From NCBI GenBank assembly GCA_008477525.1, contig SPDT01000003.1, forward strand, positions 2,170,001-2,234,000: a DNA stretch of 64,000 nt, written 5' to 3'. Origin of the DNA: Hypomyces perniciosus. Taxonomy: Eukaryota; Ascomycota; Sordariomycetes; Hypocreales; Hypocreaceae. Position 1 is the stretch's first letter, and each line of letters opens with the position of its first letter. The notes under the pieces were generated by a model. The model was not told the origin of the DNA and did not search any database. It was given only the letters and a program-made list of their open reading frames with translations. The translations under genes and the position numbers were made by a program. This document shows, in pieces, positions 54-36,180 of this stretch.

Positions 54-65
54 TGAAAACTTGCT
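54..65. repeat. Left copy of the LINE target-site duplication
   Basis: The 12-mer TGAAAACTTGCT here is repeated exactly at 5978-5989, directly after the LINE poly(A) tail. The uninterrupted site is visible in the sister LTR near 17370-17405. Confidence 0.9.
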
Positions 66-5977: not shown

Positions 5978-5989
5978 TGAAAACTTGCT
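5978..5989. repeat. Right copy of the LINE target-site duplication
   Basis: Exact second copy of TGAAAACTTGCT following the poly(A) tail; pairs with 54-65. Confidence 0.9.
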
Positions 5990-6153
5990 AATTAATTGAT
6001 TATAACCACCCGGATCTAGGAAAACTAGCTGTTATGATATTGTTATTAACTTATAGATCCGGCTATTATTGCAAGCTAGTTGGGAATTAAGGAATGTTTA
6101 TTGGAATAAAGGAATATACTGTAATATAAAACTATCTGTTATTAAGGTTAATA

Positions 6154-7135
6154 TACCCCCTTAAGTTAAACGATATTTAGACTGTTAATAAGAACAGTAA
6201 AGTGATAGTTATTGAATTGCTTATTAAAAGGAATAATAGAATGATAACTGTTTAAAGAACTAGACTAGTCTATATCTAAGTCTTCCTAGGCTTTAAAAAC
6301 ACTGCGTATATCGATAAGACCTAATTGTTTGATAAAGCGCTTAAATTTCTAATTTAGAAAGACTTTAATTAATCTATTAGCAATTATTTAATTAATTAAA
6401 GTATATACTACTTTATATAATTTTTATTAATAAGTTTAATGAGCCTAGCAGCTATATATATTAATATACTTAAGCTGTATTTTTAGCTAGGGCTAGTCTG
6501 GCTTTAATAGCCTGATTGTTTAATAGTTATTATATTTAATAACTAATTAGTTATTTAGTTAGAGCGTTATTTAGTCTATTAGTCGTTAAATTGCAATAGC
6601 TTCCTTTACTATATAATTAAAGGCAAGAAGCTTGGCTTTAGTTAATAATATTATAACTATTGGTTATTTACCAGCTTTCCAGCTAATTAGTCCGCTGAAT
6701 AGGATTATAATATATCCTTATAATAACTTCCTGGTTTAAGGATTGTCTGCGAAAGCGGTGTCAGAAGCAATTCAAAGATCCCTTATACTAGGGCTTAGTC
6801 CCTTACTTAGTTATACTGTATTAATGCGGCCATTAAATTTAATAGCTAGATATTGTATTGACTAAAGGTATTTTAATAGCTTAATAGCGAGATTAATATA
6901 TTAGTCTAATAGGTTAAGCAGGAATTCAGCTAGCTTGGCTGTTAGCTTAGCTATATTTAGTCTTATAATAACTATTATATAGTTAATAGATCTTATCTTC
7001 TATTAATATAGAAGCATTATATTCTTAGGAGCTTAGTTTTCCTGTTATTTTAATTTATTAAAAGGGAATAGGCTGCCTTTAAAGTGTTTTTTTTATTAAT
7101 CTAGAATCAGTTAGCGATTTTTTTAATATACTTAT
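6154..7135 (-). mobile_element. 3' part of Copia A internal region (RNase H end of pol and 3' leader)
   Basis: Lies between the left LTR of A and Copia B. On the minus strand the segment next to 7135 continues the Copia pol frame that leaves off at 14258, which fixes it as the RNase H side of A. It has numerous stops. The last five bases, 7131-7135 (CTTAT), are the left target duplication of Copia B. Confidence 0.7.
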
Positions 7136-7401
7136 TGTTGGGTTGAGTAGGCCGGGGCCCTACTGCTTGCCGGCGCTAGGGAGCTCTTATCTGCTATATA
7201 AGCAGATACAAGCTGACATATACACTGCGTAAGCGATATATTAGACTATGCAGGCGCTTCATAAGCGCCTGCATACAGCTTCTTCTTTATATTAGCTATA
7301 TATATATATAGCGAGGCCACTACAGTATATTCTCTTTTATAGAATTAAGCTTTATTTCCTATCTCTCTATACTCTATATAGCTATACTGCGCTCCGCTAC
7401 A
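7136..7401 (+). repeat. 5' LTR of Copia B
   Basis: 266 bp, starts TGTTGGG and ends CTACA. The next bases, GTTATAAGCC, recur after the LTR ends of two other Copia copies here (34175 and about 42913) and are therefore the likely primer-binding site. CACA and TGTG steps kept in the 3' LTR are TATA here, so this copy took far more RIP. Confidence 0.9.
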
Positions 7402-13154: not shown

Positions 13155-13508
13155 CTAGGAGAAGTCTTTTTTACCAGCAATTGCCGACTTTAGACAACCC
13201 TCATAAAAAGGGGATAACAGCACAGCAGTAAAGGTAGCGGCAGTAGCAGAGGCAGAAGCAGAGGCAACCGCAGGAGCAGCCACCAGAGCAGCAGCAACAG
13301 GGGCAGGGGCTAGAGCAGAAGCAATAACTGCCTCAGCAGCGAGGCATACTTTACGAGCAACAGCCAAGCGTGCATTAAAAGCAGCAAGAGCCGCAATACG
13401 CCTTGCAGGAGTAGGAGCAGGAGCCAGAGCAGGAGCCGGCGCAAAAGCAGGAGCAGTAATAGGTATAGCCGCTCGGCCAGCCAAGCGACTAACGCCGCGA
13501 CAAGCCAC
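13155..13508. repeat. GC-rich GCA/GGAGCA-type repeat in the 3' untranslated part of Copia B
   Basis: Between the end of pol and the right LTR lies an imperfect run of GCA, GAG, GGA and AGC triplets (densest about 13226-13470). It reads as Ala-rich on either strand, including an open minus-strand frame of 117 codons, and is followed by a TTA/ATG-rich microsatellite (about 13630-13690). I regard the open frame as a by-product of the triplet repeat, not a gene. It is notable because CpA steps survive here whereas the rest of the element has lost them. Confidence 0.6.
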
Positions 13509-13986: not shown

Positions 13987-14252
13987 TATTGGGTTGGGTA
14001 GGCCAGGGCCTTACTGCTTGCTGGCGCTAGGGAGCTTTTATCTGCTATATAAGCAGATACAAGCTGACACACACACCGCGTAAGCGATGTGTCAGACTGT
14101 GCAGGCGCTTTATAAGCGCCTGCACACAGCTTCTTCTTTGTGTTAGCTATATGTATATATAGCGAGGCCACTACGGCATATTCTCTTTCATAGAATCAAG
14201 CTTCGTTTCCCATCTCTCTATGCTCCACATAGCTGTGCCGCGCTCCGCCACA
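13987..14252 (+). repeat. 3' LTR of Copia B
   Basis: 266 bp, same length as the 5' LTR, ending CCACA. Its first two bases are TA instead of TG, a single G-to-A change. It keeps runs such as ACACACACAC and GTGT that are TA-rich in the 5' copy. Confidence 0.9.
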
Positions 14253-17200
14253 CTTGTTTTAATAGAGCTATAGCTTTTGGGCTACTTTGTTATACAGGAT
14301 CTGAATTCCTAGGAACTATTTAAGCTCCTTTAAGTCATTTATTTTATATTGCGACTTTAATTGCTTAATAAAGATTTTAATATTAGCGGTATACCTAGGT
14401 CTATATAGAAGAATAATATTGTCAATAAAGAAGAAAACAGTTAGCTAGTTATTATTAAAGAGATAGGGTTCTTTTATAGATTATTATATCCTAGCTATTT
14501 AAATATAGCTGTAAAATCCTTTTGCTATAGCAGTAGTGATCTCTGCAGCCTATAGAAAGCTTTAAGCAGCTTTAATACTTATCCTTTGCGTTTAAAGCTA
14601 TTTAAAAACTATATAAATATATCTTTATTAAGGAAGCTATTTATAAATATATTAACAGCATCTAGCTATTATATATTAAGATTAAATTTAATAGTAGTAG
14701 CTATTAATATTTAAAAAAATCTTTTAGTTAATATAGCAGTAAATATTTCTTTTAATTTAATTTATTAAAGATCTTTTTAAATATAAACTCTAGCCTTAAA
14801 TTTTATTAAAAAGCTGTATTTATTGAATTTATATTTATAGACTTAAGTTAAAAGAAGGATTTAACCTTTAACTTAATCTTTCTATATCAGCTTAATTATA
14901 CTATAAGTTTAAAGCTGGTTTTATTTAATCTTTATAGCTTTATAAAACTAGCTTTTATATTTATAGCCAATTAATTTACAGTAATATTTTAGCTTAAAAG
15001 GAAGACTTTATTAATAAAGTTATTATTTGCAATTAATAATAAAGCTAGCTTTATAATAGGTAAAGCTATTTTAAGGGTATTCTACGCTAAAAGTAGAATT
15101 TATAGCTTATTATATTAGTTTTCGAATTTAGGTTAATTATTAAGGCAGTTAAAGAACTTAAGGTATTATTGCTTTACAAACTTCTTCTTTAATTATTAAA
15201 TTTAAAGGTTCCTAGTTAAAGCGCTTTACTTTTTAATTCTTTAATATATTAGATTTGCAGATTTAATGTATTTATTGGGTTTAAGTATTAAATATAGTTT
15301 TTATTACTGCTTTTTAGTATTTCTAGCAGCTTTAGGTTTAGTTAGATTATTTAGTTAATCTATGGATTTATTAGAATTATTTTATATAAGTTCTTTAATT
15401 AGTTTATCGCCTAGTCTTTTACCTATTTAAATTATTAATTAAATATCCTTTTTTTTTATCAAACTTAAAGTTTATTTTCATATAATCCGGAAAAAGAAAA
15501 TAAAATAGTTTTGCGGCTTATAATGGCTTTTCCTGATAATTAGCAGGATTATAGAAAATTTCTTTATTAAAAGTTATATCCTTAACTCTTTAAACCTTAT
15601 TTCTTTTAAAGATCTAGATTTTAAAAATATTTATAAAACTGTATTGAATTAAATAGCCGAGTTTAATATAAAGTCTAGTCTTTAAATTCTTTTATTATAT
15701 ACCCTATAGTGCTTTTATCATTAGTGGATAAGCCCTGCAACTAAATACCTTAAAATATATAATATTAGGCTATTATTTAAAATAGCCTAAGTCTTTATTG
15801 TTAGTCTAAAGCTATTAATAAAAATATTAAAAAGGCTAGATTTAGCGAGGCTATATTTATATAAAAATCGGGAATATATATAATATTTATTAGCTTAAAA
15901 CTGGCTTTAAGACCGATTTTAACGATAATATCGCTGTATCCTTAAATCTTAAAATATATATTCCTTTTATATAATAGTTTTAATACTGGCTAAAAGGTAT
16001 TTTTAATAAATCTGGCTTTATTATTATAAATATAGAAACTGGATCCTGAATTTAGAATAAAAGAGTCTTTTAATAGATAAATAGCTATTGCGAATAATGC
16101 TTTTATCATTTTTAATCAAGTTAATAGTGATTTTAATATAAAAAAAGCGCCTAAAATAACTAGTTCCTTTTATTTTTTCTGTTTTTCCTGTTATTTTAAG
16201 TTTTCCTTAGTTAAAGACTTTAACTTTTTAACTTATACTCTAGCCTTATTAATATATTCTTTAAGTTTATTATTTTTAAGCTTTTTATTAACTTTTTATT
16301 GCATTTAAGCGTTTAAAACCTAGCCTAATAGTTAGATTAATTTCATAAAATAGTAGTAGGCGGAATATTAATAATTCTGGCTATAGAGATATTAGGAATT
16401 CGTATTTGATTTATTTTTTAATAAAGGAGTAGGTTCTTCTCCCTAAAATATAAGAAATGCTCCTTTAAATGCATTTATCTTTAATTTATATTAATAATTA
16501 AAGATTTAACTGATAAAGATAGCATTATATTTCTCCTGCTATTAGTTATTGGATTTCGTTAATCTTTTCTTTTTAATTTTACTAATCTAGTTATTTACAA
16601 AAATTAGATTAATCTTTTAAATAATATTTAAGAGATCTCGAGTTAGTTAAAGGTTTTTAGTCTCCGGCAGGTTAGCTTTAATAGCTTCTTTAAATGCTAT
16701 CTGCTAACAGCTTAGTTAATTTTAAATTTTTATTTATTTAATGCCTTTAAAGGCTTTTAAGTAAACTTACTTTACTTTATTTTATATAGCTTAATTATTT
16801 AGCTTAAATTAGTCTTTAAAAGCTTAAAGTTACTTAAAGACTATTACCTTTTTTAAGATTATATAGTTTTAGGGACCGCCTATCTCTTAAATCTGGATTA
16901 TAAGCTTTCCTAAAGCTTTAAAACGGTTACTATACTGTTTATATTAAAAATCATATTTTTCTTTAAAGAGTTTAAGCTTAAATAATTTATTAGTATTTAG
17001 ATTAGTAATATTTATTATTTCCGGCTAGATTATTTAAAGAGTAGGTGCCTTAGGCTTAATAATTATAGGCTTATTGCTAATATCTAGATTAATATATCTC
17101 TAAATATTATAGCTAATAGCTAGCTGTTTAATAGAGTTAATCTAAAGATCTTAGTTATTTAATCCTTTTAGAATAACCCGGGAAAAGGTTGACGTTATAT

Positions 17201-17321
17201 TAATAGTATTGTTATTGCAAAGTAGAAGCTATATGGAAAAACCCGATATAGACCAGGCTTATAACTATTAATTACAGATTAACAGTATAAGGGCTTATTT
17301 ACAGGTGTATAAAATAATAGA
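14253..17321 (-). mobile_element. 5' part of Copia A internal region (gag to reverse transcriptase)
   Basis: Begins with the right target duplication of Copia B (14253-14257, CTTGT) and runs to the right LTR of A. On the minus strand the part nearest Copia B encodes the reverse transcriptase core (about 14270-14480, with D-N-I-I-L-L-Y and then F-L-G-I-Q). By Copia order, integrase and gag should lie toward 17321; I could not place their boundaries because RIP has removed most landmarks. Confidence 0.75.
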
Positions 17322-17552
17322 ATTTAATACTCTTGCTAATCCTAAGTTAAGTGGGAAAAGCTATTGCTTAAATATATAAAAACTTACTAACTAATTAATT
17401 ATAACTACCCGGATCTAGGAAAACTAGCTGTTATAATATCGTTATTGACTTACAGATCTGGCTGTTGCTGCAAGCTAGTTGGGAATTAAGGAATGTTTGT
17501 TGGAATAAAGGAATGTGCCGTGATGTGGAACTATCCGTTACTGAGGTTGACA
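17322..17552 (-). repeat. Right LTR (5' LTR) of Copia A, uninterrupted
   Basis: About 230 bp, ending GGTTGACA on the plus strand (TGTCAACC on the minus). It matches the split left LTR and preserves the empty LINE site. It is less RIP-mutated toward 17552, where the gene island starts. The 69-codon minus-strand frame at 17431-17640 crosses the LTR end and is not a gene. Confidence 0.85.
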
Positions 17553-18019
17553 ATAAAGTTTCTTTATAGTCTTGTGAGAGAAATGGACTCTTTTTTTTAT
17601 ATTTACATGACTTCTTCTGTGTATTGTTTATCTCGTACAATGAATCATGAAGGCACCAAGTAACGCTCCTGTAAGAGGTTCTGACTTAAAGTAATGGTCT
17701 AAACAGTAACTTTGTCAAAACGAATAGCTACTTGGCGGGTTGACCACGTAAGTCGGGCACATAACCCGTAACTTGCACCAATACATAACCGTCTATCTTG
17801 ACTCTAGGTTAACCTCCTAACACTATCTATAACTATATTAATCAGGGAAAATAATAGGCAATGGTCTTCATTTAATAGAATTTATGAATATACTTCTTGT
17901 AGCTATGTGTGAAAAGGTTGAATTAATATAGACTTTTAAAGTATATAGAAGGGATATAAGCGCATTTTAGTACACTGATTTATATACTTACATTAACAAT
18001 ACATAACGTTAAATAACAC
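17553..18019. other. Non-coding left edge of the gene island
   Basis: Moderately AT-rich sequence without RIP-level decay and without a frame I can support. It separates Copia A from the 33-bp repeat. Confidence 0.5.
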
Positions 18020-18118
18020 GGCTTTGATTAGTTTAGCAGCTTCGAATAATATGGCCCTGATTAGTCTAACAGCCTCGAATAATACAGCATTAATTAGTCT
18101 AGAAGCTTAAAACGCGGC
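18020..18118 (+). repeat. 33-bp tandem repeat, three copies
   Basis: Three head-to-tail units of 33 bp (starting near 18020, 18053 and 18086) share the core GATTAGTCTAGCAGCTTCGA, with mostly C/T and G/A differences between units. A fourth, inverted copy lies at 18148-18174. Confidence 0.8.
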
Positions 18119-18147
18119 ATGAAAATATTATAGCTTTAAATAGAATG

Positions 18148-18174
18148 TTCAAAGCTGCTAGACTAATCAAGGCC
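18148..18174 (-). repeat. Inverted copy of the 33-bp repeat unit
   Basis: TTCAAAGCTGCTAGACTAAT followed by CAAGGCC is the reverse complement of the tandem unit core, about 30 bp after the array. The arrangement could fold into a hairpin with any of the three direct units. Confidence 0.8.
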
Positions 18175-18189
18175 ACGGCGCTTAAGCCT

Positions 18190-18762
18190 ACATATATAGT
18201 CGGCTCGGAGCTCTTGGAGCATTGATATTGACGAAGATCCGGATTCACCACCCATCAAATTTGTAATCTGTATTCTAACCGGTCAAGCTGTCGCACAAGA
18301 TATTTCCATAGTCAGCAGTTATGACACTAGACAGGGGCTGGTTCCACCTGTATTCCAGATCAACTGATCTCCGTGAGCGTAGGCCCATGTGTCTGTTCCT
18401 CTCATCCTATCTTATTTCTCGGCCAAGAAATTTCCAATACTACTGCATATGTGACCCGACGCGTTCCCCTGTACATCTCATTAGACATGCCGTCACGGCC
18501 CACCAGGTATTCTTTCGTAATATTTCGTTTTTATCTGACAAACGCGACGTACCAATACGCTTGCTTGAGTTTACCAAGCATCTACTTATCTAAAATATTT
18601 TTGGCCATCTGTAGCTGTGGAGGGCAATTTCAGTCGCTCTGTATGTTGGAAAATCATCTGGATTATAGAAGGCTTGCACGATCTATGGAGGAGAGGGTAT
18701 TCGGGCGGCTGCCGAATGCGCTATTTCTTTTTATAAACATTGGGTCACTGTGGGGCGGCTAG
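18190..18762 (+). pseudogene. Possible gene remnant, unrecognised
   Basis: Base composition is that of coding sequence, and a frame without ATG at 18190-18369 contains an acidic, proline-bearing stretch (D-E-D-P-D-S-P-P-I) that looks like protein. It ends in TGA. Two overlapping plus-strand frames follow (18321-18593, 90 codons; 18373-18762, 129 codons), but neither shows a domain, signal peptide or convincing start. I cannot join them with good splice sites. A decayed or truncated gene at the island edge is my best reading, with low confidence; it may simply be non-coding. Confidence 0.2.
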
Positions 18763-20649: not shown

Positions 20650-21420
20650 CTAAAATAAGACTCGTCTGGCCTTGTCGATGCCAGTGATATCCCAAGGCTC
20701 TGGCTTTGTACGCCTCATCCAAGCCATCCAATCGCGGTCAGAAGATGGCTTCATCATTCTGGCGTATTCCCAATAGTCGGGATACCATCCTGCACTCTCC
20801 CAGTCGATGAGACCCAATATCTGGCCGTCCTTGTCCACCATGATATTCCGTGGAGCAATGTCCCCGTGTGTGAAGACAGCCTTGTCTGAATGGGGGATCA
20901 TACTAGGCAGATCCTTGCCATCGGCATACGAGAGTCCATTGCACTTCACATACCGGGCGAATATGCGGTCGCGCAGGGCCGCATCGTCGTGAAGCGGTGG
21001 TGTAATGTCTTTTTTATCGCCTAGAAGCGGGTCCAAAGTCGGAGAGCCATCGGCAGTGCAATAGAAGGAAGCGTCGAGGTGTGCTGGACGGGGGATGGTG
21101 CGGATCTTCTCCACCAAACTCCAGATATCACGACAGATACACTCCTTTACCGTATCGTCGAACGAATCCCATATAGAATCGAGAGCGACGCCTGGTAAGA
21201 AATTCATATATATCTGGCCCATGGGAAAGCCATCTGAAAGGCCGAACCAGGAGTCATAGACGTGGGGGGCGGGAACTGAAGGCGCATGCTCTCTGACGAG
21301 ACGGATTGCCGCTTCTTCGTTAGGTCGGACCCTGGAGCCCCATTTCAAGACGACATCGGGCGCGAGCTGTGTGACTTCACATCCACCCTGTTTCGCAAGA
21401 GTACGCGGCTCCATCTCCAT
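20650..21420 (-). CDS. Aminoglycoside phosphotransferase (APH)-family kinase-like protein
   Basis: 256 aa, intronless, close to the usual 250-300 aa of fungal APH-type (choline-kinase fold) proteins. Visible landmarks in order: V-V-L-K-W near 26, with Lys as the probable ATP-anchoring residue; the N-E-E-A-A helix near 34-38, with a candidate paired Glu; the catalytic loop T-H-G-D-I-A-P-R-N at about 184-192 (Asp187, Asn192); and G-L-I-D-W-E at about 203-208, with the metal-binding Asp206. All key residues are present, so it is probably an active small-molecule or protein kinase; the substrate is unknown. Fungi carry many such paralogues, and the antibiotic-resistance name should not be read as function. 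The start at 21420 (M-E-M-E-P) is the first in-frame ATG after a stop just upstream; the second Met, two codons later, is an alternative. Confidence 0.85.
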   Translation of the reverse strand: MEMEPRTLAKQGGCEVTQLAPDVVLKWGSRVRPNEEAAIRLVREHAPSVPAPHVYDSWFGLSDGFPMGQIYMNFLPGVALDSIWDSFDDTVKECICRDIWSLVEKIRTIPRPAHLDASFYCTADGSPTLDPLLGDKKDITPPLHDDAALRDRIFARYVKCNGLSYADGKDLPSMIPHSDKAVFTHGDIAPRNIMVDKDGQILGLIDWESAGWYPDYWEYARMMKPSSDRDWMAWMRRTKPEPWDITGIDKARRVLF

Positions 21421-22037
21421 CTCTTCGGGATCCGAGGCTATACATCATCAGCAAGCGTGCGACATTGAGTCTAGGGGTCCTACCGGACATGGTTGGCATT
21501 TACCATAGCCTCGTATCGGAGAGGGGTGAGCCTGTTGACTTGGCCAGGTACGAAAAGGCCGTGTTATGAGAATATCACCGATGTCGGAACTCCTGCTAGG
21601 ATGTATAAAAGCGGTGGCAGTGTTGGCTCCGTTTTAAGTATGAGTGGAAGACAATGTTCCAACCTCAATAACCTCTAATCCCATGAAAGAAAAAAACATC
21701 ATCACCAGTAAGTAGGAGATTTTGTGAGACAATATATAGCCATTTACAGCGCCGCCATACGCTCCAAACGTCAATTAGATAGCCAAACATGGCCAACAGA
21801 CCACCGAGAGTACGGCGTGAAACTCGACAAATGGCTGCAGACAGCACTGTGCTTCATCGACAACACAAACTGGAGCCGCGTTCATCGGAGCCCTATCAAC
21901 CGTCATTCAAATATAAGGCACCCCCAACCTCGGTTTCCTATAATACTCACCTATCAGAGCGCAGAACATGAACTACGCTCGCGTTCTTGGAGGACTCTTG
22001 GTCCCGGTGGAAGTATAATAAAGGGCATCTGGTAATT
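21421..22037. other. Intergenic region between the APH-like gene and the 566-aa protein gene
   Basis: Contains the promoter side of the minus-strand APH-like gene. A TATAAAA box faces right at about 21604-21610, but no convincing gene follows: plus-strand frames 21493-21678, 21724-22035 and 21789-21971 are short and featureless. Confidence 0.45.
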
Positions 22038-24607: not shown

Positions 24608-25489
24608 ATGGCCGTGGAGCTTACCTACCTACTCTCCCCGAAGTTCTATTTCAAGCGAGACGGCCCAATCTCGCTGGGCAGTATCGTCGCTGACCCGTTC
24701 CGGCCACACCTCGTGCTGACAACCGTGGACGCTGCCACCCTCGCCGAGCGCTACCCAACGGTCAGGACGTTCACAGATTTCGACCAGAACCTGACGAGCA
24801 GCCATGGGAGGGGTGCCTCCGTGTCGGCCTGGCTCGAGTTCCTGCAGACCGCCAGCGCGAAGGTCGGACTCGCCCGCCAGAAGCAGCGGCTTGACCAGTA
24901 CACCATGACCTCGCTCGAGACCGAGTATTTTCTAGAATTCCCTAGCAAGGAGGAGATCAAGACGCGTGTCAAGGTTGACCGCGTGCGTGAGGTGATCAAG
25001 GCCAGCTTCTTTCCCGGCGTCCGGCAGCCTGTGTACATGGTGACTGGGAGGAAGGTGGCCAGAGGATTCTCTGTGGTGCATGAGAGCGGGAAGCAGACGG
25101 GGGGCGAGGCTAAGGCTGGAGGTTTGGCTCCCACGCCTGCGGGAAACGTGGCCATCCAAGGTGGTGCGTCTAGGCACACGGCAAGGGAGTTGCAGACCGG
25201 GTGGAGGGCCGAAGACGAGCTTGTGTTTGCGTATCAGCTTATGAAGATTGATGTCAAGGGCTGGAAGGACTCTAAAGTTGAATACGACGAGTTCAGGCAC
25301 GAGTCGGCACTTCTTTGTAACGACGATGAAGACGACGAAGAGGAACAGGATGAGGATGTCGATATTGACGTGCATATCGGTACGGCTACCCCTGCTGACC
25401 TGGCTAGAGTGGCGTATGATGGGGCGATGGTCACGGTCGAGGTTGGCGAAGGTAAACAGAGACTGTTTCTCGTTTCAACACGCGATTGA
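24608..25489 (+). CDS. Gasdermin-like pore-forming cell-death protein (RCD-1/HET-Q1 type), candidate
   Basis: 293 aa, intronless, near the size of fungal gasdermins. Two stretches fit the gasdermin N-domain: residues 17-37 (R-D-G-P-I-S-L-G-S-I-V through P-x-x-L-V-L), like the conserved first-strand pattern of animal gasdermins, and residues 139-158 (P-V-Y-M-V-T-G then hydrophobic alternation), like the L-Y-V-V-T-E membrane strand. A charged amphipathic stretch (about 83-130), a Gly/Ala-rich loop (161-187) and a strongly acidic run (239-252) before a short C-terminal tail follow. Family knowledge: fungal gasdermins are kept inactive by a short C-terminal part and act at the plasma membrane after proteolysis or allelic interaction. 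The convergent subtilisin gene 139 bp away is the best contextual support (HET-Q1/HET-Q2 arrangement). The frame is open and shows no RIP damage. The ATG at 24608 is preceded by an A-rich context. The call rests on pattern and neighbourhood, not a database hit. Confidence 0.65.
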   Translation: MAVELTYLLSPKFYFKRDGPISLGSIVADPFRPHLVLTTVDAATLAERYPTVRTFTDFDQNLTSSHGRGASVSAWLEFLQTASAKVGLARQKQRLDQYTMTSLETEYFLEFPSKEEIKTRVKVDRVREVIKASFFPGVRQPVYMVTGRKVARGFSVVHESGKQTGGEAKAGGLAPTPAGNVAIQGGASRHTARELQTGWRAEDELVFAYQLMKIDVKGWKDSKVEYDEFRHESALLCNDDEDDEEEQDEDVDIDVHIGTATPADLARVAYDGAMVTVEVGEGKQRLFLVSTRD

Positions 25490-25628
25490 TGATTAGAAAC
25501 GTGTAATCTTTTATTTATTTTTTCGAGATGTCTAGTCAATCTCGGCTAAAGCGTCTTCAAATTTTGCCCATCGCGGCACTTCATCGATACGCAGAAGCTT
25601 ATCTAGCGACACAACGAGATGCCCTTTA
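25490..25628. other. Shared 3' intergenic region of convergent gasdermin-like and protease genes
   Basis: Only 139 bp separate the two stops, so 3' ends of the transcripts probably overlap. An AT-rich TTTTATTTATTTTTT tract (about 25508-25522) could serve 3'-end formation for the plus-strand gene. Confidence 0.5.
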
Positions 25629-28573
25629 TTACCTATGTAACGAGCGTACTGCCAGAGACCTGAACATCGCGAGCATCCCTGGCTGAGTTTTAAGTTTCCT
25701 GATGATTTCTGAGTTTCCGCCTTTCCGCACTTTCCAAGTCGCATATTCGAGCAATACCGCTGCCATTCCAGCCGCGATCGCCGTCGCCACGGAGGAGCCC
25801 GACCGAGGCTCCATAGTGTGACCTTGGCGGATTGATGCCCCTGGAACATCTACGCCCAGTGTTCCAAACACTATTCCCTCGTCCTCCTTCCGTTGGGGGT
25901 TAAAGTCTGGAAAGAAGCCATTTGCGTTGGAGCCGCGCATGGAGATGACGGATGAGAATCGCGCCGGAAACATCTCCGGCTCTCTCACCCCAAAGTTGCC
26001 TGCTGCTGCAAAGAAGAGGATCTCTTCATTACGTGAGAATACGCCGCCGAGGATTACTTTCTTAATCTTCAGTTTATCTTTCCTATACCCAAAAGACATT
26101 GAGATAATATCAACTTTCCATTCTTCCAATGCCCATTTAATTGCCTGTGGCCAGTCAGTCGCAGAACATTGGCGGTCCGCCGAATAGAGTGACGCTGGGA
26201 ACGCTACCTTTACCACAATCTCGTCGCCTGCAACCTCAAGTCCTTTCTGATCTTCGGCGACCCGTGCCACGTAGATATCAGCCTCCGGGGCGACCCTCAT
26301 GATCACAGACACGACGTGCGTCCCATGTCCCGCCACATCGATAAAGTCTGGAGAATCTTTGGCCCAGTCTTTCCAGAGCTTTAGTCGGCGGTGACGAAGC
26401 GGCAGGTGGAAGAATACAGCATCATTTTTGCAGCCTGTGTCTAGTACTGCGATCTTGATACGGGCCGGCAGACCGTCAGATCGTTTTCCAAGCCCTCCAA
26501 TGATGTGAGAGTTGAAGTGGTCTATATGACGGAGCCATTTTTCGGACAGTTTTTGTTCGCGTATCGTCGAGGCGTTCTTCGGCGTCGCCGGCTCCGGCTC
26601 CTGTATAGCTGGTTGCGGCACTTGTGGTAAATCCACAGGGCCCAACGCAGACAGGTCGTCTATCCATCCGGTTGCTCGGACAAACTCTTCTAGAGGAGCA
26701 ACAACCTTCTCATACAACAGCTTCCGCCGTTTCCTTATAGCCTCAGCCTCCTCTTCTGCTTGCGTGTCTACGTTTTCGGCCGGTGCTTTGGCATTCCGAA
26801 GCACACTTTTGACCTGGCCTATGTTGCTGCCCGGGGCTTTGACACTTTTCATCTGCGAGTTTGCAGCTTGCACCTGCACTTTCACACCAGGGTGCAATGT
26901 AAAGTTCTCGCCCTCGAGACAGCACCTTGTCACAGTTCTATAAGTTGGGAAGTGGAAGTTAGGCCACGGCTCCTTCGAATCCGAATAGTTCTTCGCCCAT
27001 AACAAGACTTGGTTTCTCCTGGCTGTCTCCGAGCCTTCTTGAACCCTGTTCTCAAGTGATATTCCCCTCCCAATCTCCACCAGCATGACCCCTGATGCTC
27101 GGATTCGAGGATAACGGTGAATGTCGCCACTGCCGACGCTGCAATCGCGGAAATGGACATCATTCTCGCCGAAACGGACTGAAAAATAAGGTTTCCATGC
27201 AAATATGCCATTCTGGGCCTCGGCTTTGCTGCCGTCTAAGTGGCTTCCGGGGATGAATTGGATGGCGTCGCTATTCCACTGCATGTTCATCCAGTCTGAT
27301 TCGTAATACTGCCAAACAGACTGAGCCACTATATACGCCAGGACACCCTTCATCGCCGCTCCCAATCTGTAATTTTCAAGGAGCTTGGAAAGGGAGATGC
27401 CCGGTTCGTTCTCGACGATATACTTCAGTTGGCATGGGTTATCTCTGAACAGCTCGCCACTTTGAATTGTTAGGCGGAGTCGTGAATTCTCGCGGAGTCT
27501 TATCAACTCGCAGAATTTTCCCGACTTTACTTTTTCAAAGACTCTACTGGTAGGCTTTCTTGGCTCTTGGTCGGTGAACCCTACCTTCTTCTCTCTTCAG
27601 TCGAGGGTAGTCAGTAGGCACGCAATAGGGATGATGCTGCGTTATTTGGGATGAATACGTTCTTACCGAGGTACTAACACTTGCACGTCTTGCCACAAAC
27701 ACTGCCCTTTTCCGCGCTAGCTTGAAAATGGTTCGTCGGAGTCTGGGAGAGTAGAGAAAAGCATCTCAAATTCAGCCTGATCCTCCGGCGTATAGGACTG
27801 TGTCCCTTTCAATAGTAGTCGGGCGATATGCATGTGTCCTCGTGGCTTTCCTTCATTATCACAACACAAGCACCTCGTGTGCCTCCTGAGAATTGTGTAT
27901 ACCAACATCTTCACCTTGGTTGAATACTCATCGGGTGTAACCGTTGGCCCGCTTGCAATGTCCGCGAAAACGGGTCGTCTGACGCCGTAAAGGCTGGAGA
28001 ATTTCTGGAAGTGCTTAATGGCTGCCTTGGCAAGAGAGGTTCTTCCTTTGGCATTCGCGTGCAAGCCGCATCGTATCTTTCGTTCCGTGCGAACATAAAG
28101 CAGAGAACCCTCTTCTTCTGTTCCAAGATCCCTCATGCATGTATACTGGTGTACCCCGGGTATTCTCGTCAGAGGCTAAAATCGCAGTCAGAGTGAGCTT
28201 TTATCATTGCAATAGATCTTCCATAGAGCCTTGCACAATTTTGCAAATGTGGAAGCGATAGCCACACATGTTGCTCTATACGTAGCTGGAAAGCTACCCG
28301 GCTCTTCCAAGGATGCAGTTGGAGAGAAGGGTAGGCCGCACTTACAGTTACAGAGCAGACTTTTTCTACATCTTGTAAGAGCTTCAGCACCAATTCCTGC
28401 ATGCTCTTCTCATCTTCTGGCATCATCGTATTCAGGGCGCACCAGACAATGAAGAGCTCACCCCCAAGACTGCGGCAGAGCTTAAGTCCCTTCTCCGCGC
28501 CCAGCGCCAGTGCGATATTCGATACGCGGAAGATTGCCACCTGGGCAATCTCAAGCAGGTTTGAGTCGTCCAT
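25629..28573 (-). pseudogene. Subtilisin-like (S8) serine protease with fungal DUF7580-like N-terminal region, HET-Q2-like, interrupted by a nonsense codon
   Basis: Model: exons 28573-28346, 28145-27667 and 27594-25629, 891 codons in phase. Intron 2 (72 nt) has GTAAGA, a CTGAC branch and an AAG end. Intron 1 is less sure: the long form (200 nt) is modelled; a 60-nt intron from the same GTAAGT plus a further one is possible. The N-terminal half is a helical fungal module of DUF7580 type. The protease domain follows a K/R/E-rich linker with all catalytic residues: A-V-L-D-T-G (Asp about 621), G-H-G-T-H (His about 659), A-A-G-N (oxyanion Asn about 769) and G-S-S-V-A-T (Ser about 837). The frame is broken by TAG at 27717-27719 (codon about 219), explained by one C-to-T change in a CpA step on the plus strand, as RIP makes. 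No splice site seems able to remove it. If functional, it would cleave the adjacent gasdermin-like protein. Confidence 0.75.
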
Positions 28574-28823
28574 CGGACACGCTGTCTCGAATCGCGAGCA
28601 TCAACTTGGCCAGCAGCGGAAAACTGCCTGTCGCAAGCAAGGGAGGGGACTATATGCATCGTTAGGCATCAAGCACGTGTAGCACGTGAGCATGATGCAT
28701 GATGCATGACACCAAATCGGGCAGCCAGCCAACCTGTGGTTTTTGTTTGGCTGCATGGCATCCCTGTTGGGTAACATGCAATCCTTCCTGAGTTTAAGTC
28801 AGACTGAAATACGGGATACAGCA
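28574..28823. promoter_or_regulatory. Compact bidirectional promoter of the protease and NLR genes
   Basis: Only 169-250 bp lie between the two divergent starts, depending on the NLR ATG. Two palindromic E-box-type CACGTG sites sit nine bases apart (28674-28679, 28683-28688), and ATGCAT palindromes occur at 28654-28659, 28695-28700 and 28702-28707. Shared bHLH-type control of both genes is an inference. Confidence 0.5.
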
Positions 28824-31800
28824 ATGTCGAAGAATGAGTCTATCCTTTACGACGCCACCGCGGCGTGCCGCAAGAGCCTTCAGGAGTGCGTCAAGATTGA
28901 CAAACTCATGAAGGACAAGTGGGCTGCGCTGCGGCTGGCGGATTTCAACCTCTGGGCCGCTGGAATTGGCGCATCCGCACGTCACAAGGCATCTCTTGAT
29001 GCGAGGCTGTCGCTTAAGCCGGACGTTCGAGACGCGGTAGCTAAGATTTTGCAGATGCTCACGGAGAGCCTAGGCACCTGCAGAAGTAGGTTAGATCCGC
29101 CCTAAGCTGCTTATTAAATATAGCTAACTTAGATGCTATTCTCCTCAGCTATTTTAAATATAGTTCTTTCACTTAATAAAGATAATAATAGTGAAGATAA
29201 AGATGCCTGTAGTCGGACTTAATCTTTAGACGACCTATCAGATTAAGCATTTTCACTTTAGCCGGGTAAATTAAGCTTTAAATCCGAGACGGAGTTTAGC
29301 AGTTTACCTGCCGGCATAGATGCTCGTCTGCTTGAAACAATGAGAACTGTAGACTCGATATTAGACCAGCTGGCCAGGATCGCAGTCGCCATCCGCCGGT
29401 CAGGGGCTCGCTCTCGGCTCCAGAAGGCGGATCGTTCGTTCAAGGCTGAAGAACACAAAGAATTGGAGGACCACCTAAAGGCAATTGTCCTCTACCGTCC
29501 AGGAATGACATTGGATGACTTTAACAAGAAAGAACTGGGCGAAGTGCAACGGCGTCTAATCAAGTGCAATCTTCAACGTCGTCACCGCTTTATATACGCA
29601 CAACGTCACGCAATAGAACTGGAACAGGTGAGACCTGCCCAGAAACCCAAAAAACAGTTTGCAACTGTCTTGCAAACAAAGGAGCGAAACAGTCCAGAAC
29701 AAGGCGATCTTGCATCCCAGAGTGTCGCTAATGCTCCGCGGGCAAATACCAAGCCCATCGTCTCCGCGCAGCCAGCAGCGCGACCTCTGAAGATGTCAGA
29801 AATTACGGGAACCACTGCCTCTGCTGTAAGCGAATCCCTTACCCTGCGACAGGATCCGACGCCATCACAAGCTGCGCCTACACTGGTGTCTACTACTGCG
29901 GCCAAAATCGATTATCCTAGGCCACCACTTGAAGCGCAGAAAGGGGCATTCTTTTTCCAGTGCCCATGCTGTTGTCAGACCCTTCCTGTCATGGTTGCTA
30001 AAGGCAACAGCTGGAAGTACGTTCATCGAGAAATAAGTCTGAATTCCGAGCTAACAGGTCAGCAGAAAACATCTCGCAGATGATGTCTGTCCCTACACAT
30101 GCGTCCTAGAAGACTGCACTAAAGAGGACGTACTATACACGACCAAGGAGGCTTGGAAGACACACCTCATTGAAAACCACCGAAGCACCTCGTACTGGGC
30201 CTGTTTTCCCTGCGGTGGTGACGTGCAACTTCCTACAGAAGCCGCCTTCATCGCACACACCAAAAAGGAACACCAGGAAACCATTTTGGAAGATCAGATA
30301 CCACTCCTGTCGCCCATATGTAAACGTTCGGTCCCTGCAGATATCGTTACATGTCCATTGTGCGATGTATGGACTCCTAAAGAGACAAATGAACTCGACA
30401 GGGAAGCTTTGATAAACCACATAGCTGAAGAGGTTCACTCCTTCTCGCTTAAAGCCTTACCTTGGCCACCCGAGGATGACGATTCTGGGTGTGAAGAGAG
30501 GGTTGGCGGTGCTGTGCAGACCGTCCAGGACTGGCTCATGAGATGGAACTTATCAATTCAGGGCGCAAAAGCACGCCCGCCGTACCGCAGGCAACGAGGA
30601 ATGCCTGATCCTTCTCACTATTTCAGAAGCCACCCATACTTCGCAGAAAATGGTGGGAATGACAGCACCAGCCGAGGCGACTCCGAAGATTCCGCAGCAA
30701 GTAATCTTACATTGCTCCAGAACGAGGGATCGTTGACCTTCACGGACTCTGGAGAGGGGCAATTGCAGGACCAGGGCAATCTGGACCAGCAGGCTGTTCT
30801 CCGTTGGCTCACCCCACTCGATTATGGCCCTCAACAGAGCGACCTGATTCATCGGCGGCAAGAAGGAACCTGCCAATGGTTTCTCAATTCGCTAGAATTC
30901 CGTTGCTGGTTGGAAACGAGCCAGCGGACATTGTTTTGTCCAGGTCTCCTTGGAGCGGGGAAGACAATCCTTATAGCAATCCTGATCGACGACCTTTGTA
31001 CTCGGTTTCAAGACGATATGAACATCGGCATTACATACATCTTCTGCAACACTCCAAGGCAAAGTGAACAGAGAGCTGATATGTTACTGGCAAACTTGCT
31101 GAAGCAGTTAAGCCAGCAAAGGTCTTCTCTACCAGCTGCCAGTGTGAAAGCTCTCTATGACAAGCATAAGAATGAACGGACACGACCGTCACTCCGCGGA
31201 ATTTCGGAAGCCCTTCAGTCTATTGTGTCTATGTATTCCAGGACCTTCATTGTTCTCGACGCCCTTGATGAACTAGTGGATGACTGCCGAACGAGATTCA
31301 TGGCAGAGGTTTTCTACCTCCAAGCCCAGAGTGGAGCAAATGTCTTTGTGACCTCGAGATTTATCCCACATATCACTAGGCAGTTTGAGGGAACTATCTC
31401 GCTGGAGATTCGTGCCAGTGAAGAAGATGTGGGAAGATATCTTGATGGCCAAATGTATAGACTCCCATCCTTCATAAATGGGAGACCTGAACTACAAGAG
31501 GAAATCAGGACTATAATTGTCAGGACTGTCGACGGAATGTATATCACACTTCCCACAATGATGTAAAATCTACTAACATCGCTAGGTTTGCCCTTGCACA
31601 ATCTTATTTTGATTCCTTGATCGATGAGTGTACCCCTAAAGCTCTTCGGGGTACTCTGCGCAGACTCTCTACTGGTTCCGACGTATATAGTGATATTTTC
31701 CAGCATACAATGAGGCGTATTGAAGGGCAACTTAGTGCAGCGAGGAATCTTGCTAAGCAAGTTTTGTCATGCATCACCTGCGCACAAAGACCACTCACCG

Positions 31801-33680
31801 TAACAGAGCTTCAGCATGCACTTGCCGTGGAGGTTGGCGAATCTCAACTTGATGAAGATAACCTCCCAGATGTTGAAGACATGATTTCGGCATGTGCTGG
31901 GCTAGTTACCGTCGATAAGAGAAGTAACGCTGTCCATTTTTCCCACTATACAATGAAGGAATACTTTGAGCAAACACAGACATGCTGGTTTCCAGATGCA
32001 GAGACTGGTATTACAAGGATCTGCCTCACCTACCTCTCATTTGACGTCTTTGAGAGCGGATTCTGTCAAACAGACGCTGAGTTCGGGGAACGACTGAAAT
32101 TGCATGAGTTTTACGGATATGCTGCTCGCTACTGGGGACATCATGCTTACAGGACATCAACTCTTTGCCAGGAAGTTATAGACTTTCTAAAGGGCGGGGC
32201 AAAGATGGAGGCATCGATCCAAACACTAATGGCCATTAAGCAAGAACCATCAAGCTCAAAGTACAGTCAAAAGGTTCCAAGGCAAATGACAGGACTGCAT
32301 TTAGCGGCATTCTTCGGCATTGAGAACGCTACGCAATACTTGCTGGGAAGTGACAAACCAGACTTGAAAGATAGCTATGGTCGGACACCGCTATTGTGGT
32401 CTGTCGGGAGAGGGCATAAGGCTATCGTACAGCTGTTGCTCTCCACGGACAAGGTCAGGGTTAACTCGAAGGACAAGGATGGACGGACACCGCTTTCGTT
32501 GGCGGCCAGGGTAGGGCACGAGGATATCGTACGGCTCCTGCTCGCTACCGACGGGGTAGAGGTTAACTCGAAGGATAATGATGGCTGGACACCGCTGTCG
32601 TTGGCCACGAAGAGAGGGCATGAGGACGTTGTACGGCGTCTGCTCGCCACGGGTAGGGTTGAGACTGATATGGATAATGATGGTGAAGCAGCGGGAACTG
32701 ACATAACTAAGATTCGCAAGGTAGGCCACTTATCTCTCTTAACATCTTCCCCTGCGCATACATTGGTCAAGTAATGGTATCCTCACTGACATCTTTTTCT
32801 GCTAGGTCATCCAAAGCCGTGGGGACCAAACAGCTACTCAGATCGACACCGATACAACCACGGAAGGTGATGCATCCCTTAAAAAACAGTCAATAATTGC
32901 TTTTTACATGGTTGTTCTACTCTGTGGTAAGTTTCCCCATTAGCGTGTTTGTTCTTTTAATCCCTTAACTAACTGCACCGCATGCTCAGACGATAGCTCT
33001 TCAATGTTAGTAGGCACCCGCATCCATGACATGATTGAGCTTGTCATGCGCATTACTCGTATCTTCGTGGTTTTTTGTCCTGAGGGCGACGGAATACGTT
33101 TACAATTGATCAATGGTAATCGCGATTTGACGATCGGCTTGGATCTTCGACAGGTCGCAAAAGTTTTATCGAGAATCAGACTCCGCGGGAAAAGTAAGAT
33201 AGGCACAAGCCTTAGAAAGAAGATTCTTAATCCGCTGGTATACGACACCATCAACAGTGGTGATGAAGTCAAAAGACCTTTGTTGGTATGTATCATTACC
33301 GCTAGTGGTCCGACTGGGGAAGCAGGAGACACTCTTAAGAATGAGATATTGGATTGTATGTCCTTTGTTGAGGACCACGGTAAGTCATCATTTAGTTACT
33401 TTCTCAGCCTCACTCACTTTAAGTTATGAATGCCCTTTTACTGAAACGTATCTGACAAAAGCTGTCAAATTCGTCATCTCCCACCTCGGTGATGATAAGA
33501 GGGCTTGCTATTTTGTTCTCAGCCTTGATGGTGATTCAAACCTTAATGACGTGTTGTATTGCGACTGTGGTAAGTGATCCCGCGTACAAAGCTCATCAGA
33601 GATTGCTAAGAGCAGCCTACTCCTCAAAGATCGGCTTCATAAAGGTTACATGGAGTTACATGACAATGAGATACGCCTAG
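28743..33680 (+). pseudogene. NLR-type STAND gene: N-terminal helical domain, C2H2-like zinc region, NACHT, ankyrin repeats, vWA; three in-frame stops in a RIP patch
   Basis: Exons: 28743 (or ATG 28824)-29085, 29149-30016, 30063-31538, 31586-32720, 32806-32926, 32990-33379, 33462-33569, 33616-33680. All phases agree (about 1474-1501 codons). Order, numbered from ATG 28824: a helical domain (A-D-F-N-L-W) to residue 87; an acidic linker; a Cys/His-rich zinc-finger region (about 360-440); NACHT with P-loop G-L-L-G-A-G-K-T (about 670) and Walker B F-I-V-L-D-A-L-D-E (about 772); three full and one partial ankyrin repeats (about 1100-1220); and a C-terminal vWA domain with MIDAS D-D-S-S-S formed across intron 5. 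TAA at 29220 and 29244 and TAG at 29259 lie in frame in an AT-rich patch with Asp-to-Asn and Glu-to-Lys-type changes. A 29086-29319 intron (ending CATAG, in phase) could skip them. The last exon is the weakest; translation could end at 33577. The protein is a likely cytosolic sensor. Confidence 0.8.
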
Positions 33681-33872: not shown

Positions 33873-34174
33873 TGTTGCTAACTGGCCGAGAAGAGTTGCT
33901 GCTTAAATACATAAAAGTTGTTTGGGGGTATAGCTACTTAGTACATATGGCGGAACGGGCTAGGTCTCCTCCATTGACCACCAGGCAATTCAGTGGTTGT
34001 GTAATACAAGAAGTATAAGGATGAAGTGCGCACAGCGTTATTGGTTAGATGCTTCATTATATAATCACAGGGGTTATGCAACGCATATATAGCAGGGCCT
34101 TTAAGGCATATACTTTTACACAATTCAAGCCATAATCTTATACTTTAATGCAAGGTGCTTGTAGCTGTATAATA
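33873..34174 (+). repeat. 5' LTR of a third Copia-type element (C)
   Basis: Starts TGTTGCTAAC, holds a TATATA box near 34085 and ends TAATA directly before GTTATAAGCCCGG, the same primer-binding-site-like motif that follows the LTR ends of Copia B (7402). Only weakly RIP-mutated next to the gene island. The boundary on the left is the least certain. Confidence 0.55.
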
Positions 34175-36180
34175 GTTATAAGCCCGGATTACTTCTAAAG
34201 TATAAAAATATATCTAAAAACTCGCTTTTTATTATTTTTAAATATACTTTATAGTTATTATAGACGCTAATAAAGATTCCTATAAGCTGCATATAATATT
34301 TAAACTACAAATAAAAAAGGATTAAGTAAAATAGATTAAAATCTTTAAATACTATATTAATAGTTAAAGGATTTAATACTAGATAAATCTTTACTGCTTT
34401 AATTATAAAAATAACTACTTTTTACTTTTTAAATAATTTATATAAAGTAATATAATAAAAAAGCTTAGCTTTAAAATTATAGATAATAAAAATACTGCTA
34501 TAAATTAAATAATTATAGTAATTTCTTAAATAATCATCTTAAAAGTATAGTAAACTTAATTTTTTGCAGGAAATAAATAAAAAAAGAATAATATTATCTA
34601 TATATAAATATTAAAGACTATTTTATAAAGCATTTATAACCTAATATTAATAAAGGAATAAATATTTATTATTTAATAAATAGTAAAGAGGAAATAATTT
34701 ATAATAGCTATTATAACTATAACTTTAAATAATATATTATTTTTAAGTATAATTAACCTTTAAGCAGATAACTTTAATAATAATAATATATATATAGCTA
34801 TTATTATATATATACTCTTTAAAGTATTAAAAAAGACTTTAGCTTTAAGTGCTTTAAGTATTAAAGAAAACACTTAAAGGAATTATAAAGCAATTTTCAA
34901 TAAAGCTTAAAGCTTAAAAATTAACTTATATAATTAATCTAATAAATAGTTAAAAGCTTATATATTAATAGTAAAATATAATATTATTAATATTTAAAGG
35001 AATAGCACGATTTCTATTTTCTTTATAGCTATAAATAGCTATTTGATATTTAATTAAACTATTAGTAAATATAATAAATTTACTAAAAAAGAGGCTAAAG
35101 ATATAAACAATATTTTAACTTTTATACTATATTTAATTATTTATATAGCAATAAAAAGCCTAATATATATATTATTTTAAAAGGCTGCTTTAATTAAATA
35201 AAAGATTAATTAAAAAAATACCCCTATAACTATAAATATTAATAAACACTTAAATACTACTAGATAATAATATATATATAGTTTATTGGGGGTAACTGAT
35301 ATGCCCAACGCACCTGCATTTTTCTTGTTAGCTTACCCGAGAAAAGTCAGCTGCTTATTTAAGCAGCTACTGGATTAAGAAAGCACAAGAAGTATAAAGA
35401 TATATAGATAGACTTAGTTTAATGCAACTTAACCTCCTTCCCCTTTTTATATATAACCCTACCTATAAGTTTACAGCTGCTAAGGTATATAAAGGTAACT
35501 GTTAGTTGCTTTTAGCTGCTGGCATTATAATTAAATAATCCGCAGTATCTTTTAGTCCCTATATTACTTAATTGCCGCTTTGTGGTTCTGTTAAGAGCGC
35601 GGTTCCCGCGCTTAATACCAGGCATTATATATAGGTATATATGTATGTTGTGTATATGTTTAGGAGTGCCAATTCCCCCTCGATAAAATAGACTAGCAAA
35701 ATAAACCTATTACAGCAAAAACAATTAACATTTAATTAAATAAAAAAGGTTTATAAATGCATTAATAAAAATAAATAGGCAAGTCTATACTTAAAGCTAA
35801 AAAATAAAATATAAAAAAGGAAAAGAAACTATTTAAATAACCTTACTGCAGCCTTAATTAACTTAACTTTAATTAATTCCTTTAAATTAAATATAAAAGT
35901 CTTTTCAACGGTTAAAAGACAGGCTTATATACTCTCTATAAATATACTCCTTAATAACTGCAGCGCTATATATATAGTAAATAATAAAAGCCTACTTAAA
36001 CCTAATACTTTTATATTAAGCGAATTAAAAAAAAAGTTAAAGCTAATATAACCTCCTTTAAAGTATTTAAAAAAGGGATATATAAACTTAAAAAGCTTAT
36101 AAATAGTATAAAAGGTATATAGATTAAAGATTTTATATTAAAAGATATTATTATTTATTAAAATAACAAGGTTATACTGA
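34175..36180 (+). mobile_element. Copia C internal fragment (gag and protease part), split by a Gypsy LTR
   Basis: Begins with the primer-site-like GTTATAAGCC. 34190-35283 is RIP-degraded with gag-like composition but no sure motif. After the inserted LTR (35284-35685), plus-strand reading of about 35910-36170 gives a Copia protease-like stretch (N-N-C-S-A-I-Y-I-V-N-N-K for the usual D-S-G-A-x-x-x-I-V-N-N) followed by L-K-D-x-x-x-x-K. Integrase and later parts are missing, so the element is truncated on the right. Confidence 0.45.
35284..35685 (+). repeat. Lone Gypsy-family LTR
   Basis: 402 bp matching the LTR family at 43282, 51298 and 62999. It starts TATTGGGGG (from TGTCGGGGG) and ends CTCGATA. 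It is followed by no Gypsy primer site and preceded by no polypurine tract, so it is a solo or recombinant LTR. Its five-base flanks (TAGTT, AAATA) do not match. Confidence 0.8.

What the first reader, a model, noticed from the sequence alone, without database searches (positions are those of the whole stretch)
24608..33680. Candidate cell-death cluster: gasdermin-like gene, subtilisin-like protease gene and NLR gene side by side
Seen: a 293-aa protein with gasdermin-like N-domain patterns, a convergent S8 protease with complete catalytic residues and a fungal helical N-terminal module, and a divergent NACHT-ankyrin-vWA gene. Known: Podospora HET-Q1 (gasdermin) is cleaved by the adjacent subtilisin HET-Q2, and Neurospora RCD-1 is a gasdermin controlling allorecognition. 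Inference: this is a HET-Q-type module with an NLR as an added sensor, a three-part arrangement I have not seen described.
Basis: partly seen in the sequence, partly recalled or inferred. Interest (0 to 1): 0.9.

Follow-up and report, generated by a model that had tools for sequence, protein, structure and literature searches.

The report
Three-gene fungal gasdermin death module
In this fungus every gasdermin (cell-killing pore protein) gene that I found sits beside a protease gene and a third gene for a receptor-like protein with swappable sensor domains, which suggests that a cell-death pathway usually described in fungi as a two-gene unit also exists as a three-part sensor, protease and pore system.

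Summary
The three genes are real. The 293-aa protein is a gasdermin (profile match to RCD-1 5e-11, HET-Q1 1e-4; best fold match the RCD-1 pore). The convergent gene is a subtilase (S8) fused to DUF7580, a possibly kinase-like domain. The divergent gene encodes NACHT, winged-helix and ankyrin domains; its vWA end is not established.

The third gene is not a chance neighbour. All five gasdermin loci found in this 44-Mb genome are such trios. What they share is not the NLR but a roughly 550-residue N-terminal module (helical part plus C2H2-like fingers); the C-terminus varies (NACHT-ANK, TPR; in relatives also WD40, kinase, PI-PLC, annexin, PUF). Module and protease distances correlate at r = 0.98 over 11 clusters. 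Glutinoglossum has the trio on consecutive locus tags. The module also pairs divergently with DUF7580 proteins at four loci without a detected S8 or gasdermin.

Best reading: a split pathway, receptor to DUF7580-protease to gasdermin. Linkage and covariation are shown; activation is inferred. In this strain the protease is probably broken (in-frame stop, late frame shift). Reviews I could read describe two-gene gasdermin-protease units; one adds that such pathways come as two- or three-gene clusters. The primary 2022 paper was not held.

The parts
24608..25489 (+). Fungal gasdermin, 293 aa, single exon; N-part net +5 (residues 1-230), acidic C-tail net -15 (231-293)
25629..28573 (-). DUF7580-S8 protease gene (HET-Q2-like); exon 1 28573-28346, exon 2 28175-27667, exon 3 27594-25629 (splice points by eye); probably a broken allele
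   Evidence: relative P0087
27717..27719 (-). In-frame TAG stop in protease exon 2, where intact relatives read through
25535..25645 (-). Last ~37 residues of the protease as conserved in relatives, in another frame than the upstream ORF (second probable defect)
28574..28823 (.). Short shared upstream region between the divergent protease and third-gene start codons (starts 251 bp apart)
28824..30760 (+). Third gene, N-terminal module (two helical parts and C2H2-like fingers, residues 1 to about 550); exons 28824-29085, 29320-30016 and start of 30066-31538
29086..29319 (+). AT-rich 234 bp with stops (GC 0.36, TpA/ApT 1.45): intron, or decayed coding linker
30865..33680 (+). Third gene, receptor part: NACHT (NPHP3_N), winged helix, ankyrin repeats, weak vWA-like end; 3' end uncertain

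Best explanation
The locus is one copy of a three-gene fungal cell-death module. SHOWN: a gasdermin, a protease made of DUF7580 (possibly kinase-like) and a subtilase domain, and a third protein made of a conserved N-terminal module and an exchangeable C-terminal part are encoded side by side at all five gasdermin loci found in this genome and in relatives, and the three genes vary together. INFERRED: the C-terminal part of the third protein (NACHT-ankyrin here) senses a trigger; its N-terminal module passes the signal to the DUF7580 half of the protease; the protease cuts the gasdermin before its acidic tail (roughly residues 228-245, by comparison with HET-Q1, whose reported cut removes about 40 C-terminal residues); the freed N-domain forms pores and the cell dies. 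It would be the split counterpart of published clusters in which sensor and protease are one protein, and closer to the animal order of sensor, separate protease, gasdermin. In this strain the protease is probably non-functional, so the window copy may be a null or decaying allele.
For: Gasdermin identity. Gasdermin and S8 gene side by side at 5 of 5 gasdermin loci found; DUF7580 on the same strand at all five, in one ORF with S8 in the window and in neighbouring exon ORFs at the other four. N-module gene beside all five, its start 0.3-4.9 kb from the gasdermin start. DUF7580 loci by Pfam: 11, of which 9 have an N-module gene within 3.2 kb, 8 of the 9 divergent; 0.03 pairs expected by chance with 11 module genes, 0.75 with 300. 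The other two are HeLo-DUF7580 proteins. Start-to-start gaps of the 8 divergent pairs 251-592 bp. Distance correlations: protease vs module r 0.98 in 11 clusters (Mantel P 5e-5); in the 5 clusters of this genome r 0.87-0.97 (P about 0.025). Relatives: Glutinoglossum FGG08_005307/005308/005309 = protease/gasdermin/NLR; equal contig lengths join the third gene to a protease or gasdermin row in 6 cases (one of them a 2.96-Mb contig, weak) and gasdermin to protease in 14. Receptor swap: relative P0205, which as held begins at module residue 320, is 77% identical over 320-550 and 21% after. Acidic tail: mean net charge -13.5 in the last 60 aa of the 82 homologues, +2.2 before.
Against: No interaction, expression or cleavage data. 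The module also pairs with DUF7580 proteins at four loci without S8 or gasdermin match, so its bond is to DUF7580 rather than to the gasdermin as such. The window protease has an in-frame stop and a late frame shift, and the third gene has a doubtful 234-bp stretch. The module's fold match to NLR coiled-coil domains is below the level the tool calls safe, and unrelated helical proteins score almost as high. In cluster B (C22:686k) the module gene lies on the gasdermin side, not divergent from the protease. The queries for the module came from these clusters, which favours finding their kin; the DUF7580 map does not depend on them.
Confidence: 0.6

Rival explanations
1. The third protein restrains the pair instead of activating it: the protease is the sensor or is active by itself, and the N-module protein holds it off through DUF7580, like a guard or antidote.
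For: Same linkage and covariation; short shared upstream regions fit balanced co-expression; HET-Q2, a 388-aa S8 protein, was enough with HET-Q1 in yeast (PMC10989679, passages).
Against: Exchangeable NACHT, ANK, TPR and WD40 C-termini are typical of sensors, and the same repeat classes are fused directly to HET-Q2-like proteases in published clusters (PMC10197012 section 15).
Confidence: 0.22
2. The window copy is a relic: with its protease disabled it does nothing in this strain, or survives as one state of an allorecognition polymorphism in which the gasdermin meets an active protease only after fusion with another strain.
For: In-frame stop and frame shift in the protease; stops in 29086-29319; the locus borders AT-rich deserts with RIP-like indices; a degenerate protease copy sits on C3. 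PMC10197012 describes pseudogenized partners as a route to allorecognition (passages).
Against: Gasdermin frame and NACHT exons are open and not RIP-like. It does not explain the other four trios. Strain polymorphism could not be tested.
Confidence: 0.55
3. The NLR is an unrelated neighbour in a region rich in immune genes.
For: The genome has many NACHT genes (103 match rows for NPHP3_N).
Against: N-module genes at 5 of 5 gasdermin loci and 9 of 11 DUF7580 loci, distance correlation 0.98, consecutive locus tags in Glutinoglossum.
Confidence: 0.02
4. The gasdermin acts like RCD-1, by meeting an allelic variant, and needs no protease.
For: RCD-1 is the closest solved structure.
Against: An S8 neighbour at every locus and a conserved acidic C-tail past the pore domain fit cleavage as in HET-Q1.
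Confidence: 0.08

Closest known systems
HET-Q1/HET-Q2 of Podospora anserina and the HET-Q2-like (Q2L) two-gene clusters
   Same: Gasdermin gene beside an S8 protease gene, short C-tail, probable proteolytic activation.
   Different: A separate third gene covaries with the pair; the protease carries DUF7580; the sensor-like repeats are on the third protein, not on the protease. HET-Q2 is a 388-aa S8 protein (PMC10989679, passages).
Fungal NLR-protease receptors beside gasdermins ('contracted' pyroptotic-like pathways, PMC10197012 section 15)
   Same: NLR or repeat sensor, protease and gasdermin in one locus.
   Different: There the protease is part of the receptor; here receptor and protease are two proteins.
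RCD-1 of Neurospora crassa
   Same: Gasdermin fold, closest solved structure.
   Different: RCD-1 is activated by the meeting of two allelic variants, not by cleavage (PMC12881547, passages).
Two- and three-gene amyloid NLR clusters (nwd2/het-S; PP cluster of Chaetomium globosum)
   Same: Clustered sensor and executioner genes; three-gene versions exist (PMC12881547, passages).
   Different: Signalling there is by amyloid motifs to HeLo-type executioners; here a protease and a gasdermin.
HeLo-kinase-like proteins (MLKL-like architecture)
   Same: Two HeLo-DUF7580 proteins in this genome share DUF7580 with the protease.
   Different: They have no S8 domain and no N-module partner found.

Membership tests
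Fungal gasdermin (fGSDM) | Sequence profile match to RCD-1 or HET-Q1 | tested here: met
   RCD-1-1 5.4e-11, HET-Q1 1.1e-4
Fungal gasdermin (fGSDM) | Gasdermin pore-domain fold | tested here: met
   Foldseek RCD-1 pore 1.9e-9, bacterial gasdermin 9e-7, human GSDMD 4.9e-5; model of moderate confidence (pLDDT 61)
Fungal gasdermin (fGSDM) | Pore formation and cell death | not testable with these tools
   needs expression
HET-Q-type gasdermin-protease cluster | S8 or CHAT protease gene within 10 kb of the gasdermin | tested here: met
   convergent S8 gene next door; 5 of 5 loci found in the genome
HET-Q-type gasdermin-protease cluster | Complete S8 catalytic residues | tested here: met
   VLDTG, GHGTH, AAAGN, SGSSVA in P0002; but the gene has an upstream in-frame stop
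HET-Q-type gasdermin-protease cluster | Protease gene intact in this strain | tested here: not met
   TAG at 27717-27719 and late frame shift
HET-Q-type gasdermin-protease cluster | Cleavage of the gasdermin near its C-terminus | not testable with these tools
   only the conserved acidic tail was seen
NOD-like receptor | NACHT domain with superstructure repeats | tested here: met
   NPHP3_N 1.8e-30, winged helix, ankyrin
   VWA_2 E 0.053, no PDB sequence match
Kinase-like (MLKL-type) regulator for DUF7580 | Relation of DUF7580 to protein kinases | tested here: inconclusive
   In L053 the stretch matching DUF7580 (1.4e-8) also matches Pkinase (9.4e-5, under its curated cut-off) and LIM kinase 1 (0.002); no kinase match for the protease ORFs themselves
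NLR coiled-coil / CC-R / HeLo four-helix bundle for the N-module | Structural match above the helical-bundle background | tested here: inconclusive

The most novel reading that the evidence does not exclude
Fungi use one interchangeable signalling pair, an N-module receptor with swappable sensor domains and a DUF7580 partner, and wire it to different executioners: to a gasdermin through an S8 protease domain (pyroptosis-like), or to a membrane-helix protein through the N-terminus of the DUF7580 protein (necroptosis-like), in the same genome. The window would be one gasdermin-wired copy of this split inflammasome-like system.
Probability: 0.4. Interest if true: 0.88.

Novelty: new variant of a known kind. 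Interest (0 to 1): 0.74.

Why it matters
The two reviews that treat fungal gasdermin clusters at length (PMC10197012 section 15; PMC12881547, passages) present the protease as the sensor and the functional unit as gasdermin plus protease, although the second also says that fungal death pathways often come as two- or three-gene clusters; it calls the nature of the stimuli a major open question. A third, covarying gene whose C-terminus alone is exchanged gives a handle on that question: it names the likely sensor, the likely signalling module and the likely receiver. It would also make the fungal pathway more like the animal one (separate sensor, protease and gasdermin). The same module and DUF7580 pair at loci without S8 suggests that one upstream module can be joined to different executioners, which is testable by domain removal in yeast.

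Tried and rejected
Chance neighbour: rejected. NLR as the constant part: rejected. PDB profile of the full third-protein alignment: the 60 rows shown were swamped by WD40 chains, so uninformative for the module. PDB profile of DUF7580: the rows shown match only the attached S8 part. Foldseek of the N-module model: nothing at 0.001, best E 0.72. vWA: not established. The similar hydrophobic start of three S8-less DUF7580 partners has no Pfam HeLo match, so the membrane-helix reading is a lead only. In the count I left out the weak or C-terminus-only rows (C3:1964k, two rows; C8:1495726; C3:4622586), none of which lies near a DUF7580 row. Literature: no held paper contains DUF7580. The listings (4 of 4; 12 of 108; 15 of 6,090; 1 of 1, unrelated; 8 of 446) showed no title or abstract on a gasdermin-protease-receptor trio in fungi; most of those papers were not opened (PMC13304501 and PMC9119436 among them). 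Papers seen: PMC12881547, PMC10989679 (passages), PMC10197012 (passages and section 15). Bacterial gasdermin operons: listing only, not followed. The primary paper on gasdermin-protease clusters (Clave 2022 PNAS) is not held and is known to me from these reviews and from recall, so a mention of the third gene there cannot be excluded. The species was not identified, and no fungal genome collection was available for a proper synteny survey.
Full report
WHAT IS THERE. The window lies in a 44.0-Mb, 23-contig genome and has fungal gene anatomy (short introns, fungal relatives). At 24608-25489 (+) is a single-exon 293-aa protein without a Pfam hit. phmmer against PDB sequences finds RCD-1-1 at E 0.0019; a profile of 42 sequences finds RCD-1-1 at 5.4e-11, RCD-1-2 at 1.1e-9 and the HET-Q1 pore 9uv9 at 1.1e-4. 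The AlphaFold model is of moderate confidence (mean pLDDT 61, pTM 0.53). Foldseek ranks the RCD-1 pore first (1.9e-9), then bacterial and Trichoplax gasdermins; GSDME and GSDMD follow (4e-5 to 5e-5), mixed with other pore proteins such as pleurotolysin. It is a gasdermin.

Convergent to it, 25629-28573 (-), is a gene with S8 (3.1e-20) and DUF7580 (5.3e-13) domains and the S8 catalytic motifs. Its frame carries an in-frame TAG at 27717-27719 in exon 2, and the last ~37 residues of relatives P0087 and P0092 match the window at 25645-25535 in another frame than the rest. The gene is therefore probably broken in this strain; intact relatives exist.

Divergent from the protease, with starts 251 bp apart, is the third gene, 28824 to about 33.6 kb (+). 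Its spliced model is open from exon 2 onward to the last exons. The first gap, 29086-29319, is an AT-rich intron or a decayed linker (GC 0.36, TpA/ApT 1.45, against 0.50 and 0.67 in the flanking exons). The gene encodes NACHT (NPHP3_N 1.8e-30), winged helix and ankyrin repeats. The vWA end is not established (E 0.053). The exact 3' end could not be fixed.

THE THIRD GENE BELONGS. The gasdermin query found four gasdermin loci in the genome, and the protease query an S8 gene beside each. Reading a further S8 locus turned up a fifth gasdermin (C8:3093375-3094406); searches with two more gasdermins found no others. DUF7580 lies beside S8 on the same strand at all five, in one ORF in the window and in neighbouring exon ORFs elsewhere. 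NPHP3_N matches (103 rows genome-wide) lie 6.3 and 7.4 kb from two of the five gasdermins and 82 kb or more from the other three. But the N-terminal 461 residues of the window NLR find a related gene beside every one of the five. Four loci have the order gasdermin, convergent protease, divergent N-module gene; in the fifth (C22:686k) the N-module gene is divergent from the gasdermin, starts 321 bp apart. The C-termini differ: NACHT-ANK (window, C8:4043k), TPR (C22:686k, C22:4767k), none recognised (C8:3093k).

A map that does not start from the clusters agrees. Pfam DUF7580 finds 11 loci. Nine have an N-module gene 1.4-3.1 kb away, eight of the nine divergent; 0.03 such pairs are expected by chance with 11 module genes, 0.75 with 300. 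Start-to-start gaps in the eight divergent pairs are 251-592 bp, with start codons picked by eye. The two DUF7580 loci without a module are HeLo-DUF7580 proteins (HeLo 7.2e-42 and 6.3e-33). Four of the nine pairs have no S8 match and no gasdermin match; in three of these the DUF7580 partner begins with a similar hydrophobic stretch, which has no Pfam match. The fourth (C3:4048k) may be partly degraded, since its matches contain stops, though introns could explain them.

RELATIVES. Among 82 gasdermin, 109 protease and 50 third-protein rows, 14 contig lengths join a gasdermin row to a protease row and 6 join a third-protein row to a protease or gasdermin row; species names agree in five of the six and the sixth is unnamed. 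Equal length is taken as the same contig, which is an inference, and one of the six is a 2.96-Mb contig. Locus tags settle one case: Glutinoglossum FGG08_005307 protease, 005308 gasdermin, 005309 NLR. Pseudogymnoascus V499_01822/01823 are protease/gasdermin; Pyrenula Q9160_006646 and 006648 are protease and N-module-TPR. Against: 44 of the 50 third-protein rows show no such link (many match only the NACHT-ankyrin half), and Clarireedia has a module protein and a DUF7580-S8 protein on contigs of different length.

COVARIATION AND SWAPPING. BLAST-score distances of protease and N-module correlate at r 0.98 over 11 clusters (Mantel P 5e-5, the floor of 20,000 shuffles). For the five clusters of this one genome, where species history cannot explain it, r is 0.90 (gasdermin-protease), 0.87 (gasdermin-module) and 0.97 (protease-module), each with P about 0.025; raw exon frames were used for four of them. 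Relative P0205, which as held starts at module residue 320, is 77% identical to the window protein over 320-550 and 21% after it (E 9e-4), where it has another NACHT type. Other relatives carry WD40 (precomputed Pfam), kinase, PI-PLC, annexin with BAG, PUF or TPR after the same module; among 16 of them, similarity mostly stops near the module end unless the C-terminal type is shared.

MECHANISM. I infer receptor, then DUF7580-S8 protease, then gasdermin cleavage, then pore. Shown: the parts, their linkage, their covariation and the exchange of receptor ends. Not shown: sensing, contact, cleavage, death. The main rival is that the third protein restrains the protease.

KNOWN WORK. [quoted passage not shown] the only three-gene example in the passages I saw is an amyloid (PP) cluster of Chaetomium globosum (PMC12881547, passages; PMC10989679, passages; PMC10197012, section 15). 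PMC10197012 calls NLR-protease fusions 'contracted' pathways; the trio here would be the split form. I saw no description of a separate, covarying receptor gene with gasdermin and protease in the listings, which are capped, and the primary paper (Clave 2022) was not held, so this is not proof of novelty.

VERDICT. A real and recurrent three-gene module: a new variant of the known gasdermin-protease clusters, with a probably disabled protease in this copy.

Noticed in passing
G000:C23:971501-979000 (L048), C5:1748501-1756000 (L049), C14:633001-639500 (L050), C3:4048001-4053000 (L051): Divergent DUF7580 / N-module gene pairs without S8 or gasdermin match; module C-termini TPR (L048) and GAS2 (L049). 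Three DUF7580 partners start with a similar hydrophobic stretch.
   Followed up: partly
L052 (G000:C23:2594001-2599000) and L053 (G000:C22:2727001-2732100): HeLo plus DUF7580/kinase-like proteins, an MLKL-like architecture, without an N-module neighbour found.
   Followed up: partly
G000:C3:1521801-1522724: Degenerate copy of the window protease (71% identity, 5 stops) beside very AT-rich DNA (GC 0.18 nearby).
   Followed up: partly
window about 1-13250, 14250-18250 and 33750-63000: AT-rich deserts (500-bp windows under GC 0.38, most near 0.2; window mean 0.30) with RIP-like dinucleotide indices where computed (33900-36000 and the whole window); the trio lies in a GC 0.5 island at their edge.
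   Followed up: partly
window 20650-21444 (-): ORF that looks like an aminoglycoside phosphotransferase/choline kinase-type protein (by eye and recall only, not searched).
   Followed up: no
G000:C3:1964421-1964974: Relative of the unannotated C-terminal part of the C8:3087k third protein, so that part has kin elsewhere in the genome.
   Followed up: no
P0198 (Botrytis), P0219 (Phialocephala), P0196 (Glutinoglossum): Near-identical internal WD40 or ankyrin repeats in third proteins (by eye), as in fast-changing fungal incompatibility receptors (recalled).
   Followed up: no
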